Below are positions 20,260-28,304 of a stretch of DNA of 64,000 nucleotides, piece after piece. The translations under genes and the position numbers were made by a program. Positions within the stretch are counted from its first letter, which is position 1, and each line of letters starts with the position of its first letter. The notes beneath the pieces are model-generated. The model was not told the origin of the DNA and ran no database searches. It saw only the letters and a list, made by a program, of their open reading frames with translations. The stretch spans positions 9,370,501-9,434,500 of the forward strand of contig OY754470.1 in assembly GCA_963575645.1 (NCBI GenBank). Reading direction: 5' to 3'. Origin of the DNA: Xanthostigma xanthostigma (taxonomy: Eukaryota > Arthropoda > Insecta > Raphidioptera > Raphidiidae).

Positions 20260-20272
20260 ATAAGCTTCTATT

Positions 20273-20758
20273 GTAAGATTAAAGGATGAATCCTGGTGGC
20301 ATAGGATCTATGAACTAAGCAAAGACTGAAGGTTTATTTATTGCATTTTATTGTCTGACGTTTCGGCAAACTTTATGCCATCTTCGGAGAATCTAGAAGA
20401 TTTATATATAAAAAGTTTCAAATTATTGTTGTTACAGTTGTTATTGTTAAAGTTATTGTTCTTAAAGTTATTGTTAAAATTAAAGTTAAAATTGGAAGTA
20501 ACAATAACAACTTTAAGAACAATAATTTTAACAATAACAACACTGTAACATCAATAATTTAAAACTTTTTATATACAAATCTTCTAGATTCTCCGAAGAT
20601 GGAATAAAGTTTGCCGAAACGTCAGACAATAAAATGCAATAAATAAACCTTCAGTATTTGCTTAGTTCATCGATCCTATGCCACCATGATTCATCCTTTA
20701 ATCTTACACATTTAAACAGGATCATCATCACTCTAAATTATTAGAGTTATTTTTCACA
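20273..20758. mobile_element. Inverted-repeat GAAACGT element (family E), full
   Basis: Arms begin GGATGAATCCTGGTGGCATA and run through the module (minus strand in the left arm, CCGAAGATGGCATAAAGTTT then GCCGAAACGTC; plus in the right arm) into a centre of AACAATAAC/GTTATTGTT inverted repeats at about 20425-20560. Flanked by ATAAGCTTCTATT (20260-20272) and ATAAGTTTCTATT (20759-20771), 12 of 13. The central open frame is low-complexity, not a gene. Confidence 0.8.
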
Positions 20759-20871
20759 ATAAGTTTCTATTATATACTTTTATTCTATACTGAGCATAGG
20801 AATAAAATCGCAATCGAACTATTAGGGTGCAAACTGCAAACATATACTTCTGTCTTTTTTTACGCCGTAAG

Positions 20872-20967
20872 CACTGGCGTATCCAGGAGGACAAACAAGC
20901 ACGGGGTGCCCGGCTTAAGATATTTCTAATTTGCCCCCTCCTGGGCCAAAATCTGGATACGCCCATG
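20872..20967. mobile_element. Short hAT-like MITE
   Basis: 96 bp with ends CACTGGCGTATCCAG and CTGGATACGCCCATG, matching the termini of the 34735-35391 element. No clear 8-bp duplication. It splits a repeat whose halves (20786-20870 and 20970-21070) match the uninterrupted copy at 47213-47405. Confidence 0.65.
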
Positions 20968-21906
20968 TAAACGTCATAGAAAAAGACAGATTGAATGCAA
21001 GTACATCAACCAATCCTATCATCGGAGAAATCAGGGAATTACATCGAAGAAAGAGACGTAGATATATTTTCGATACGCTTTGTTGCGTTCACTCACCGCA
21101 CATTGAGTAGATAGGCAACGATTCATATAGTTAATTAATAGATATATGGCTTCTATAGACAAATAATTAACCCCGAAAACAATTTATAATTATGAGAAAA
21201 GCCAAAATTAGACGAATTGTCCACATTTCTTTTTCTGAAGTATCTAACTAATTTAAACGAAGATGTTGCATGATATTATGCAACAGCTGCAGTTGACATA
21301 CTTGTAGGATGTGCAAACTAGTCTCTAACTCTTAGACATAAAGCATAACTTCATAGTTCTCATATTGTTCAACAGTTGTAGTTGACTAGTATATTTGTGG
21401 AAACTAGGGTTACGAGTTAGGCTTTCCAGGTGTCCGGCTTTTTACGGTCGTGTCCGGCCAAATATTTACGTGTTCGGCCTGTCCGGCTTTTCTTAGGCAT
21501 TTGGTCTGTGTACTTTTAATTATAGACTTTTTGATATTTGCCAGAGTTTGAAATTGTAATTTTGTAATAAAGATCTTTTTGTTTTTATCCAAAAGAATGG
21601 ATATATTTTTTATATAGTTAACGAAAACTTTTTTGTTAAAAGAGAGATATATTTATTTGTTTTTTTTTTTTTAATTTGTCTACTAATAGTCCTACAGAAG
21701 ACTGCATCAATATCATAATGTAATAAATACAAAATAATGATCATAAGTTGTTGAATGTTGTAACAAAACTGTGATTAACTATTAAATAATAATTAATAAA
21801 CAACTTTAAAACGAACCTAACAGAGTTACGACAATACGCTAAATTACAGGCATTTCAATTAATTATTTTTATTAATTATTTCACTGTTTGGAAAATAGAT
21901 TGTAAA

Positions 21907-22268
21907 CAAATCTTTGATTAACGTCTGATTAGAACTCTTCAATAAATAAAATTATCGACCAAATTTTCAGAAAAAATATTAACAAAAAAAATATAATAAT
22001 TAATACATGAACGTTTCGGTCCGGATTTGGAACTTCTTCAGAACTGATCCAAAAAATATAAAAATTGATTAATAATTAGTTTGATAATTCAAGACTTAAA
22101 GCGAATTTTTTTCAAATACCAATTAGAAACTAATTATTAATCAATATTTATATTTTTTAGATCAGTTCTGAAGAAGATCCAAATCCGGACCGAAACGTTA
22201 ATGTATTATTTATTATTTTTTGTTAATATATTTGTCTGAAAAATTGGTCGACAATTTTATTTATTGAT
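21907..22268. mobile_element. Inverted-repeat GAAACGT element (family A)
   Basis: Cleanest family A copy. The right arm reads TTCTGAAGAAGATCCAAATC, CGGACCGAAACGTTAATG; the left arm is its reverse complement. Outer ends are TCTTTGATTAACGTCTGATT on the left and AAATTGGTCGACAATTTTAT on the right. Flanks TAGATTGTAAA (21896-21906) and TAGACTGTAAA (22269-22279) match 10 of 11. Confidence 0.75.
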
Positions 22269-22314
22269 TAGACTGTAAAGTTTTTTTTCGTATTTTATCT
22301 AAATAGTTTGTTGA

Positions 22315-22383
22315 GAGAGAATGTATGTAAAAGAGAGAGAGGGAGAGGGAGAGAGAGAGAGAGAGAGGGGGAGAGAGAGAGAT
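22315..22383. repeat. GA-rich microsatellite
   Basis: Imperfect (GA)n with GGGA variants. Confidence 0.9.
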
Positions 22384-22894
22384 GTGGTGTAAATTATAGA
22401 CGCTCGGCAAGTGAGGTCATTGGCTGCATCTAATCCAAATTAAAGAAATCGAAAGTGCTGGGAATAACTTCACCTTTTGTTTAAAGAAATAGGATAGGTG
22501 TGTGTTCCGCTGTAGAGAAGTTTGTAGAAGAAAAGAAACATATGTGTCTGTTTACAGAGAAAAGAACTGATACACTTTTACCTTGTGTTTCTATCGAGTT
22601 TGAAAGTAGATGTATCCCTGTTTTACTTGTCTCTGGCCACCTGCCTGTTTAGAAAACTTTGTGGGGAATCTTAACAACTTCTCCTTCAGATATAACCTTT
22701 ATGTTATATACACACGTCATATTCATGGACCGACTACATAAGTAATCTGAAGAATGTAATACATGATTCCCAAAAAAAAACTTCGATAGTCAGAAAATAC
22801 TGTTAACCCTTCGGCAGACTCTTGAATAACTCATTACGAGTTTTTGTGTAGCATATCGAAAATTTAAATGTTAGTCATAACAGGCATAGATTTT
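22384..22894. other. No gene recognised
   Basis: No protein or RNA gene. Unremarkable AT-rich sequence. Confidence 0.5.
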
Positions 22895-25829: not shown

Positions 25830-25831
25830 TA

Positions 25832-26455
25832 CCTTAATCAATGAAATTGTGAGAACCAAATTATTGACACCTAAACCGTTCTTAACTCTAATTCTACTAT
25901 TTACAAAGTCTTAAATCAATAAAGAACATTAAAGAATAAAGTAGAAGAACAAAAGTAAAGTAAAAAAAAAAAAATGATGATTCGTGTTTCAACGTAGGTG
26001 AGACCATAGACATACAATAATATCTCTGGGTGAGACATTACAATTTTCAAGTTGATCCATTATTATAAAGATGGGACATTTATGCACTCTACACAAAGCT
26101 GTGAAATAAAGCTTCATCCATCATCATTAAGCTGCCATGAATATCAAATTAGCAGGATTATAACTGGATAGAAATTTGACTGTGCAAAGTGTGAATGATG
26201 AAGGCGGAAGATGCGATGGAAGTTATAAGTAGAGATCAATTAGGTAAATCTTGAGATGCCCTGCCTGCCTACCTTACTTAATAATACACAGAGTCAGGTA
26301 TAGCATTAATCCGTATATGCATATTATATACAATATAATAACGTAGGTATAATATTATAGATCCGTAAAATACAGTTATTTAGTTGCATGATGCTTTGTT
26401 ATAGATATTTATTTAGTCGCTAATTATCATTCAAAGCTAGCAGTGGCTCAGTCTC
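25832..26455. other. No gene recognised
   Basis: Nothing recognised. Confidence 0.5.
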
Positions 26456-26632
26456 GTTAGCTTGTGTTGCGGTTACGTTCAACAGATGTCGCTCCTGTTG
26501 CCGTAAAATATTTAGTATAGCGTGTGTTGCTTTAACGCCCAACAGATGGCGCTGTAGCCAACAGATAGCGCTCCCGTTACGGAAAATTATTTAGTATAGT
26601 GAGTGTTGGTTTAACGTCCAACAGATGGCGCT
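26456..26632. repeat. 80-bp tandem duplication
   Basis: Two units of about 79-80 bp, each with AAAATATTTAGTATAG or its variant and CCAACAGATGGCGCTG; a third partial motif lies at 26556-26575. The AACAGATGGCGCT word is frequent in insect repeats. Confidence 0.7.
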
Positions 26633-26855
26633 GTTTTTCAAAAAAAGCATATTTTCACCTGTCATCGGTGTGATATCAATATAATAAGTATAAAAAGACG
26701 CGCGTATTCGAATGCCACGTTGTATCAAAATTTCAAAGCAATCGATGATTAACTTTCGAAGATTTAAGATTTTGAACAAATGAACATTACATTTTTGTTT
26801 ATGTAGATTAAAGGACGGTTTATTTTTAAATCATAAGATTTAATGAATTTTTTTA

Positions 26856-27207
26856 TCTATATACTAATATTATATAAAGCTGAAGAGTTTGCTTGGTTGA
26901 ACGCGCTAATCTCAGGAACTACTGATTCGAATTGTTTTTTTTTTTTTTGATAGTCCATTTATCGTGGAAGGCTATAGGCTATATAACATCACGCTACGAC
27001 CAATAGGCGCGGAGCATCAATGAAAATTGTTGCAAAATATGACTCAAAATTTGTCCGTCCGACAAAAACTTTTAAACGGTAACTCCGATCATCATGAAAT
27101 TTGGACACAACATTCATCTCGGTAAACTAAGATGCATGTGCGTATTCACGTCCCTCCCCTCCCCATTCGTTCTTTTGCACCCGGGTGAAACCGGGCAGGA
27201 CCGCTAG
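26856..27207 (+). mobile_element. Helitron, family 1, complete
   Basis: Starts TCTATATACTAATATTATAT after A; ends with hairpin CACCCGGGTGAAACCGGG, CAGGACCG, CTAG before T. No target duplication, as expected. 352 bp without the tRNA insert: this defines the simple form of the family. Confidence 0.9.
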
Positions 27208-27735
27208 TATTATATATTGTATTGTAAACAATTTGAGATTAGAATGTATGACTTTAAATGTTTTTCATTTTCATATAGTCACTTTACTTATTGCAACTAT
27301 ATTCAAGCGTTACGTTTACGAATAAATAAATAAATGTACTTTAGGTCGTTATACTCGTATATAACCAAATAGCAGCACATATTCATAAATATTCAAAGTT
27401 TTGACGATAGTTTCATTTGCCAATTGTAGATGACACAGTTTATAATTATATACTTGCGGGTAACACATTTTGACAGTACAGTAGAAGTCATGTATTTTCA
27501 ACCTGTCGGAACTAATCGACTCGTGTATTTTAACTTACATAGACCAATCAGAACTTTGACTGAGCTAAGTTAGAGAACAGAAAACTCTTTGCGTTAAAAA
27601 TGGGAAAACTGAAAATACGTAATTAAAATCAGCGGAAAAAAGATGGTGTTGAAAATACGTGAGTCCGACTGTATTAGGAAACGTAAAAGTTCGAATAATC
27701 GTTTCGATTTATTTAAACGAAACATTCCCAAGTAT

Positions 27736-28100
27736 GTATTCAGCATAAAGTAGTGTTGATCCAATAGAATGTTACGATGGAGGAAGGTTTTGGTTGAGGA
27801 TCATAAATAAGCTTTACCAATGTTACGCTAGTGGCCAACGTTATTTTCATCTTCAGGGCCTCAAGCAGGTCAAAAGGTGGTAAATTGTTCTAACAATATA
27901 CATGCTCATTGTTATTAATTATTAAATTCAATTATTAAACACATAATAATAATGATCATGTATATTGTTAGAACAATTTACCACCTTTTGACCAGCTTGA
28001 GGCCCTGAAGATGAAAATAAATTTTTCGAAACGTTGGCCACTAGCGTAACATTGGTAAAGCTTATTTATGATCCTCACCCAAAACCTTCCTTCATCGTAT
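27736..28100. mobile_element. Inverted-repeat GAAACGT element (family F)
   Basis: Arms share GAGGATCATAAATAAGCTTT, ACCAATGTTACGCTAGTGGC and the module CCCTGAAGATGAAAATAAAT, TTTTCGAAACGTTGGCC. The module's stem (GAAAA/TTTTC) is intact. Exact 13-bp duplication CATTCCCAAGTAT at 27723-27735 and 28101-28113. A single-arm fragment is at 53630-53700. Confidence 0.85.
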
Positions 28101-28304
28101 CATTCCCAAGTATATCAAAAACGCAATTTCGAAATGAAATCAATCGGAATTTTAACGCAATCACTAAGGGATTATTTGTTGATTCGTTCTGAACTGCGAA
28201 AGTGTATGCTGGCAACAATGGACTGTTCAGATACAACTGATTGTTGGTCAAATTCATTATTTATCTGTGTGTATTCATCTATGATTATCATATTGTGATC
28301 ATTT

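What the first reader, a model, noticed from the sequence alone, without database searches (positions are those of the whole stretch)
20260..28113. Unrelated inverted-repeat elements share one hairpin module
At least six otherwise dissimilar families (A 14007 and 21907; E 5572 and 20273; F 27736; G 42390; H 46447; I 24624) contain GAAGAW or GAGGAW, a short hairpin, then (C)GAAACGT, usually preceded by CT. Different stems are kept by compensating sequence: GGCAAAAA/TTTTTGCC, GTTTTA/TAAAAC, GAAAA/TTTTC. That pattern suggests selection on an RNA fold. It resembles the hammerhead core (CUGANGA-stem-GAAA) known in Penelope-like elements, but every case has one extra base before the stem and I see no convincing outer stems.
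Basis: partly seen in the sequence, partly recalled or inferred. Interest (0 to 1): 0.75.

Follow-up and report, generated by a model that had tools for sequence, protein, structure and literature searches.

The report
Hammerhead RNA in Penelope-type retrotransposon insertions
The shared hairpin is a small self-cleaving-RNA (hammerhead) motif carried near the 3' end of Penelope-like retrotransposons, and the inverted-repeat elements are their truncated double-ended insertions, which is a known kind of thing; the surprise is only how regularly each insertion carries an extra tail on just one of its two arms.

Summary
Stems I and II covary across 15 flank-distinct families (86.7% of cells paired vs 58% shuffled). 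The 623-Mb genome (organism not identified) holds about 14,500 exact cores against 4 for the reversed pattern.

The inverted-repeat elements are head-to-head pairs of 5'-truncated PLE 3' ends with target duplications (mostly 12-13 nt) and an element-derived tail on one arm. Family A is tied to an 821-aa PLE ORF; for E, F, G, H, I no ORF link was found. The families share the module by descent. PLE hammerheads, inverted pLTRs and the tail are all in print. The point I would push: 34 of 36 pairs with a clear target duplication have exactly one tail, 2 are ambiguous, none has zero or two, which argues for two coupled reverse-transcription starts. Self-cleavage was not tested.

The parts
20260..20771 (.). 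E2: head-to-head pair of 5'-truncated PLE-type 3' ends with target duplications 20260-20272 / 20759-20771 (ATAAG[C/T]TTCTATT); tail about 20708-20757 on the right arm only
20353..20391 (-). hammerhead motif, E2 left arm (CCGAAGA: U4 replaced by C)
20589..20627 (+). hammerhead motif, E2 right arm (one stem II pair broken)
21896..22279 (.). A2: head-to-head pair; target duplications 21896-21906 / 22269-22279 (one mismatch, by eye; the automatic scan did not find them); tail 21907-21938 on the left arm, identical over 32 nt to the stretch before the ORF of the family-A PLE
22006..22045 (-). hammerhead motif, A2 left arm
22164..22203 (+). hammerhead motif, A2 right arm (second stem II pair broken, A-C)
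24607..25145 (.). I: head-to-head pair; target duplications 24607-24623 / 25129-25145; tail about 24624-24657 on the left arm only
24725..24764 (-). hammerhead motif, I left arm (second stem II pair broken, C-C)
25027..25066 (+). hammerhead motif, I right arm (same broken pair)
27723..28113 (.). F: head-to-head pair; target duplications 27723-27735 / 28101-28113 (CATTCCCAAGTAT, exact); tail from 27736 on the left arm only
27833..27860 (-). hammerhead motif, F left arm, with an 11-nt deletion
28001..28039 (+). hammerhead motif, F right arm: intact stems I (GGCC/GGCC) and II (GAAAA/TTTTC)
13997..14377 (.). A1: head-to-head pair; target duplications 13997-14006 / 14368-14377 (one mismatch, by eye); motifs 14073-14112 (-) and 14222-14261 (+); tail 14333-14364 on the right arm
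5558..5912 (.). E1: pair in which only the right arm holds the motif (5737-5775, +); target duplications ACGTTCTTA 5558-5566 / 5904-5912; tail about 5858-5903 on the right arm
16740..16922 (.). I-short: pair truncated before the motif on both arms; target duplications 16740-16753 / 16909-16922; same family tail as I on the left arm
42470..42510 (-). hammerhead motif, family G, no inverted partner found
44459..44498 (+). hammerhead motif, family A, no inverted partner found; base 17 is G, so not expected to cleave
46497..46539 (-). hammerhead motif, family H; partner arm is a short stub within 46596-46638
2812..2851 (+). degenerate family-A-like copy
8188..8226 (-). degenerate copy (weak)
   Evidence: (E 0.023)
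50061..50086 (+). copy truncated at stem II (GTCTAAATCTATAGACGAAACGTT)

Best explanation
The elements are truncated insertions of several Penelope-like retrotransposon (PLE) families, and the shared module is the minimal hammerhead ribozyme motif that sits in the PLE terminal repeat (pLTR). Shown: motif anatomy, covariation, target duplications, 3'-anchored 5' truncation, head-to-head pairing, a family-specific tail on one arm, and for family A the PLE ORF. Inferred: the PLE protein (RT plus GIY-YIG endonuclease) makes a staggered cut about 13 nt apart; reverse transcription starts from both target strands at two sites downstream of the ribozyme (distal = with tail, proximal = without); both cDNAs run through the ribozyme, stop early, and their ends are joined head to head. 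Taken from the literature, not tested: in tandem PLE transcripts the motifs may pair through their ACGU palindromes and cleave as dimers, or cleave with help from the PLE protein.
For: Core, stems I and II, H17 and ACGU. Genome counts 7245+7281 vs 3+1 for the reversed pattern. Of the 100 copies listed first, neighbours within 2 kb are 17 head-to-head, 2 tandem, 0 tail-to-tail. Target duplications: 16 of 23 pairs vs 11 of 506 swapped-flank controls; 30 of 46 unique pairs, controls 95 of 2294. 3' anchoring with variable 5' ends: 53 of 54 I matches end at base 195 or later of 199 and start from 1 to 155; 58 of 61 F matches end at 163 or later of 167 and start from 1 to 132; each search scored only the best 40 candidates (of 1261 and 2244). 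Inner junctions differ between pairs of a family. Family A: 821-aa ORF (L118) 29% identical over 771 aa (E 2e-70) to an 804-aa ORF with RVT_1 and GIY-YIG (L062); the window A2 arm matches its 3' repeat, which holds the motif, and the 32-nt A tail is there exactly, once after the ORF and once 26 bases before the ATG. 21 of 30 fetched GIY-YIG loci hold a hammerhead motif. L062 has the motif in both 300-nt direct repeats of its ORF region. Same architecture in print: PMC3846280, PMC11167929, PMC7761336.
Against: No ORF link for families E, F, G, H, I: tblastn with PLE queries, the L118 ORF included, hit neither the window nor any of the 20 loci fetched for I and F; they may be non-autonomous or their ORFs too diverged. 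9 of 30 GIY-YIG loci showed no convincing motif in the 3.2 kb fetched. Upstream of the ORF in L118 only the last 97 nt of the repeat are found, without the motif. Rfam hammerhead models do not match (gathering level; up to E 10). The 821-aa ORF has no significant Pfam match itself. Cleavage is untested, and in the one biochemical PLE study ribozyme mutants did not affect insertion in vitro (PMC11167929). 16 of 46 pairs had no target duplication above threshold.
Confidence: 0.93

Rival explanations
1. The pairs arise by fold-back self-priming: one cDNA snaps back and copies itself, giving a palindrome from a single start (self-priming, on an antisense template, is discussed for Adineta PLEs in PMC3846280).
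For: Arms of one pair are more alike than arms of different pairs (family A 0.92 vs 0.79, F 0.97 vs 0.91, GATAC 0.97 vs 0.94), and several centres are near-symmetric with a short loop.
Against: A second arm copied from the first would repeat its tail; 34 of 36 pairs with a clear target duplication have exactly one tail, 2 are ambiguous, none has zero or two, and within a family the tail is the same sequence. Partner arms often differ in length.
Confidence: 0.1
2. Non-autonomous DNA transposons (MITE or foldback type) with terminal inverted repeats that captured a structured RNA module.
For: Inverted repeats with target duplications, short, many copies.
Against: Inner junctions differ between pairs and arms are truncated to different points while the outer ends are fixed; single-arm and tandem copies exist; target duplication length varies from about 10 to 17; family A has a PLE ORF.
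Confidence: 0.02
3. The motif is no working ribozyme but a conserved DNA or RNA signal for PLE integration (protein binding, RT start positioning), with the hammerhead likeness a relic.
For: It lies 42-103 nt upstream of the shared 3' end of the arms; ribozyme mutants did not affect insertion in vitro (PMC11167929).
Against: Compensating changes in both stems keep pairing, not sequence, and the kept bases are the catalytic ones, with H17 never G in 21 representatives. PMC11167929 reports protein-dependent cleavage by such a motif.
Confidence: 0.12

Closest known systems
Minimal type I hammerhead motifs of Penelope-like elements (Cervera & De la Pena 2014; Lunse, Weinberg & Breaker 2017; both not held, seen as reference-list entries and as described in passages of PMC7761336, PMC6155905, PMC6466107)
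   Same: Lack of stem III, location in pseudo-LTRs, thousands of copies in an animal genome, proposed action as dimers
   Different: Nothing fundamental; families of this genome; one extra base before stem II in all 22 representatives (I could not check how usual this is in the unheld papers)
Poseidon PAc of Anolis carolinensis (PMC11167929, section 3 read)
   Same: Hammerhead at the pLTR-ORF junction, internal RT starts, tail between two start sites, both target strands cut and extended
   Different: PAc ORF starts at stem II; here the family-A ORF starts after the tail. In vitro no start-site difference between strands was seen; here nearly every measurable pair has one arm of each kind
Penelope elements of Adineta vaga (PMC3846280, passages)
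   Same: Inverted head-to-head pLTRs, short target duplications (8, 9, 10 bp), 31-bp tail on one of the inverted pLTRs, palindromic junctions
   Different: Here duplications of about 10-17 nt, mostly 12-13, and very many short pairs without an ORF
Viroid hammerhead with an extra core nucleotide (De la Pena & Flores; only the title seen, in the reference list of PMC6155905)
   Same: An extra base in the hammerhead core
   Different: Viroid; position of the extra base recalled, not checked

Membership tests
Hammerhead ribozyme | CUGANGA and GAA core | tested here: met
   alignment: CTGANGA exact in 13 of 15 families, E and H each with one change; GAAA in 15 of 15
Hammerhead ribozyme | Stem II beginning G10.1-C11.1 | tested here: met
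   15 of 15, with one extra base before it
Hammerhead ribozyme | Stem I enclosing the core, cleavage base H17 | tested here: met
   58 of 63 cells vs 29.9 shuffled; 3 bp or more in 16 of 21 (H and L023 1 bp, G, L007, L062 2 bp); H17 T15, C3, A3, G0; window copy 44459 has G
Hammerhead ribozyme | Stable stem III | tested here: not met
   reduced to A15.1-U16.1 and C15.2-G16.2 without a loop (U-G in L062)
Hammerhead ribozyme | Match to Rfam hammerhead models | tested here: not met
   whole window, gathering; L001; 151 bases of F
Hammerhead ribozyme | Self-cleavage | not testable with these tools
   needs transcripts
PLE minimal hammerhead | No stem III, palindromic ACGU, location in PLE terminal repeats | tested here: met
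   for family A (3' repeat) and L062 (both repeats); families E, F, G, H, I by motif and, where measurable, architecture only
Penelope-like elements | ORF with RT and GIY-YIG endonuclease | tested here: met
   L062; family A by full-length homology to it, no Pfam match of its own
Penelope-like elements | ORF link for window families E, F, G, H, I | tested here: inconclusive
   F and I: no hit in the 20 loci fetched; E, G, H not searched in the genome
Penelope-like elements | pLTRs, head-to-head copies, target duplication, one-arm tail, 5' truncation | tested here: met
TIR DNA transposon / MITE | Fixed internal sequence and both ends equal | tested here: not met

The most novel reading that the evidence does not exclude
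Double-ended PLE insertions are made by two coupled reverse-transcription starts that are obligately different: one target strand is always primed at the distal start (tail) and the other at the proximal start, perhaps because the two subunits of a PLE protein dimer hold one RNA asymmetrically. The optional tail would then be the fixed signature of strand order rather than an option.
Probability: 0.4. Interest if true: 0.5.

Novelty: new member of a known kind. Interest (0 to 1): 0.3.

Why it matters
It removes a puzzle (unrelated elements sharing an RNA fold) by showing common descent plus constraint, and it explains why the fold is so often kept: it lies within about 40-105 nt of the end where reverse transcription starts. 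The one-tail rule gives a direct, cheap test of how PLEs insert double-ended copies.

Tried and rejected
Rejected: MITE/foldback transposon (variable junctions and truncations); chance (shuffles); a canonical three-stem hammerhead (no stem III, no Rfam match); fold-back self-priming as the sole route (one tail only). Led nowhere: Rfam at loose thresholds gave no hammerhead, only unrelated weak matches, and microRNA-family matches on another stretch of L001; Pfam on three ORF fragments of the window gave nothing; no PLE ORF pieces in the window or beside the fetched F and I copies. A first, cruder target-duplication scan picked mostly wrong boundaries and was replaced. A left-right imbalance of tails in the first sample (13 to 3, counted by eye from the 16 clear pairs) has no biological reading on arbitrary strands and was not pursued.
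Full report
What is there. The window is bases 9,370,501-9,434,500 of contig C7 of a 623-Mb, 28-contig genome. A covariance model made from 14 families finds 17 places in the window with E at most 0.023, six of them in the model. Genome-wide the pattern CTGAAGA-N(8-26)-CGAAACGT occurs 7245 + 7281 times against 3 + 1 for the reversed pattern.

What the fold is. Taking 21 representative cores with their flanks, the bases before CTGA pair with the bases that follow ACGT plus one: 58 of 63 cells of the first three pairs are standard pairs, shuffled mean 29.9 (sd 3.8), 0 of 5000 as high; sliding the 3' side by -1, +1 or +2 gives 15, 16 and 24. 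The run is 3 bp or more in 16 of 21, 2 in G, L007 and L062, 1 in H and L023. The skipped base is T 15, C 3, A 3 and never G, as required of hammerhead position 17 (rule recalled). Stem II pairs 2-4: 60 of 66 cells against 32.6 shuffled, maximum 46 in 20,000 (22 rows, two of them family A). Several of these families are related by their flanks, so I kept 15 (dropping L008, L017, L021, L023, L024, L028 and the second A row) for the formal count: 86.7% of cells paired vs 58.0 shuffled, covariation score 0.762 vs 0.178, slid versions 0.08-0.18; all eight variable stem I and II pairs show changes on both sides (loops were cut out for this alignment). Two measures there do not exceed the shuffles: the number of pairs with a double change (241 of 500 as high) and of further pair types (75 of 500). 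Stem III is only ACGU, which pairs with itself in two base pairs or, in principle, with the ACGU of another copy.

What the elements are. The inverted-repeat elements are two 5'-truncated copies of one family's 3' end, joined head to head, with the motif, where both arms keep it, reading outward on both. Of the 100 copies listed first (all on C1), neighbour pairs within 2 kb are 17 head-to-head, 2 tandem, 0 tail-to-tail, about 3 expected by chance. In the I family 53 of 54 matches, and in the F family 58 of 61, reach the 3' end of the query while 5' ends scatter; only the best 40 candidates of 1261 and 2244 were scored. Partner arms in a pair often stop at different points. In the three families with several pairs the inner gaps all differ (GATAC 12, 21, 59; F 31, 54, 119, 288; A 82 to 203 and one over 1 kb), so each pair was formed anew.

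Target duplications and tails. With an automatic scan, 16 of 23 pairs (16 fetched; 7 in the window, with hand-set arm ends) have a duplication of score 9.5 or more against 11 of 506 swapped-flank controls. In the larger scan (49 rows, 46 unique pairs once three window repeats are dropped) it is 30 of 46 unique, controls 95 of 2294; 19 of its 32 rows have 12 or 13 nt. In 28 of these 30 one arm runs straight into the duplication while the other has 23-62 extra bases; the other two (L069, L075) are ambiguous; a pair with no tail or two tails would have been seen as zero on both sides, and none was. Of 17 further I and F loci examined, six gave a measurable pair and all six are one-tailed. The tail is element sequence: in five families copies carry the same tail with nearly the same end (29 loci; L011, not among the confident pairs, did not fit, and L071 gave no result there). 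In the window the tails are on the left arm in A2, I, I-short, F and on the right in A1, E1, E2 (the A1 and A2 duplications are by eye, one mismatch each; E1 scored 9.0).

Link to Penelope-like elements. GIY-YIG (PF01541) gave 37 matches (150 of 521 candidates scored), several in long open frames. Of the 30 loci fetched, 21 hold a hammerhead motif: 5 with GAAACGT (L029, L035, L036, L038, L040) and 16 of L041-L058 with CTGAAGATGAGAGCAT[A/T]GCTCTCGAAATGT; 9 do not, or only as a dubious pattern match. Some of these loci overlap or adjoin. L062 holds an 804-aa ORF with RVT_1 and GIY-YIG, two 300-nt direct repeats that each contain that motif, and a head-to-head inverted truncated copy. For family A, a 94-aa ORF end lies between the arms of L015 and, in part, between tandem motifs in L026; a genome search with it scored 150 copies of 2724 candidates, and in 7 of the 10 loci fetched (5 separate places, one of them L015's own; misses L110, L111, L112) the family-A motif follows on the same strand, at closest about 190 nt downstream. 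L118 has an 821-aa ORF, 29% identical over 771 aa to the L062 ORF but without a Pfam match of its own. Its 3' repeat matches the window A2 arm and carries the motif with two G-U pairs in stem II; the exact 32-nt A tail occurs there and again 26 bases before the ATG. Before the ORF only the last 97 nt of the repeat are present, without the motif. So the tail is the stretch between repeat end and ORF start. For families E, F, G, H, I no ORF link was shown.

How it works, and what is known. Published: PLE pLTRs hold minimal type I hammerheads lacking stem III, metazoan genomes hold thousands of such motifs, and they may cleave as dimers (PMC7761336, PMC6155905, PMC6466107, passages); inverted pLTRs, short target duplications and a 31-bp tail optionally present on one inverted pLTR (PMC3846280, passages); and, for Anolis PAc, cutting and extension of both target strands, two internal RT starts, the tail as the stretch between them, and protein-dependent ribozyme cleavage not needed for insertion in vitro (PMC11167929, section 3 read). 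Cervera & De la Pena 2014 and Lunse et al. 2017 are not held; I saw only reference entries and what the reviews say of them. The data here fit that picture closely. The one-tail rule goes a step beyond 'optional' and beyond the in vitro finding of no start-site difference between strands; I did not see it stated in the passages read, but my literature searches were not aimed at it.

Limits. Cleavage not tested. The pairs examined come from first-listed places on a few contigs plus the best I and F matches, not a random sample. Window copies are decayed: F left arm deleted, 44459 has G17, E has a changed U4, A and I a broken stem II pair. The organism was not identified.

Noticed in passing
39166-41430: Nested inverted repeats of 46-117 nt, 93-98% complementary, with about 0.75-2.2 kb between arms: a larger inverted-repeat element of another kind.
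   Followed up: no
3329-5441 and about 44505-44610: Inverted repeats of 80 nt at 99% with 2 kb between; sequence similar to neighbouring inverted repeats of that element (3471-3540 / 4971-5064) abuts the family-A copy at 44459, apparently another transposon inserted in its tail region.
   Followed up: no
62520-62567: CGAAACGTAACTG[T/G]CTATGATCACACTT repeated about 40 nt apart; shares CGAAACGT with the motif but has no hammerhead core.
   Followed up: no
48049-48121: tRNA-like match just above the Rfam cut-off (30.1 vs 29 bits), possibly a tRNA-derived repeat.
   Followed up: no
L062, 3376-6501: A perfect 1563-nt palindrome with no spacer, running to the end of the fetched stretch: a very young double-ended PLE insertion or an assembly artefact.
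   Followed up: no
L035, L036, L061: Some PLE-linked motifs here have the canonical CTGATGA core, still with the extra base before stem II.
   Followed up: partly
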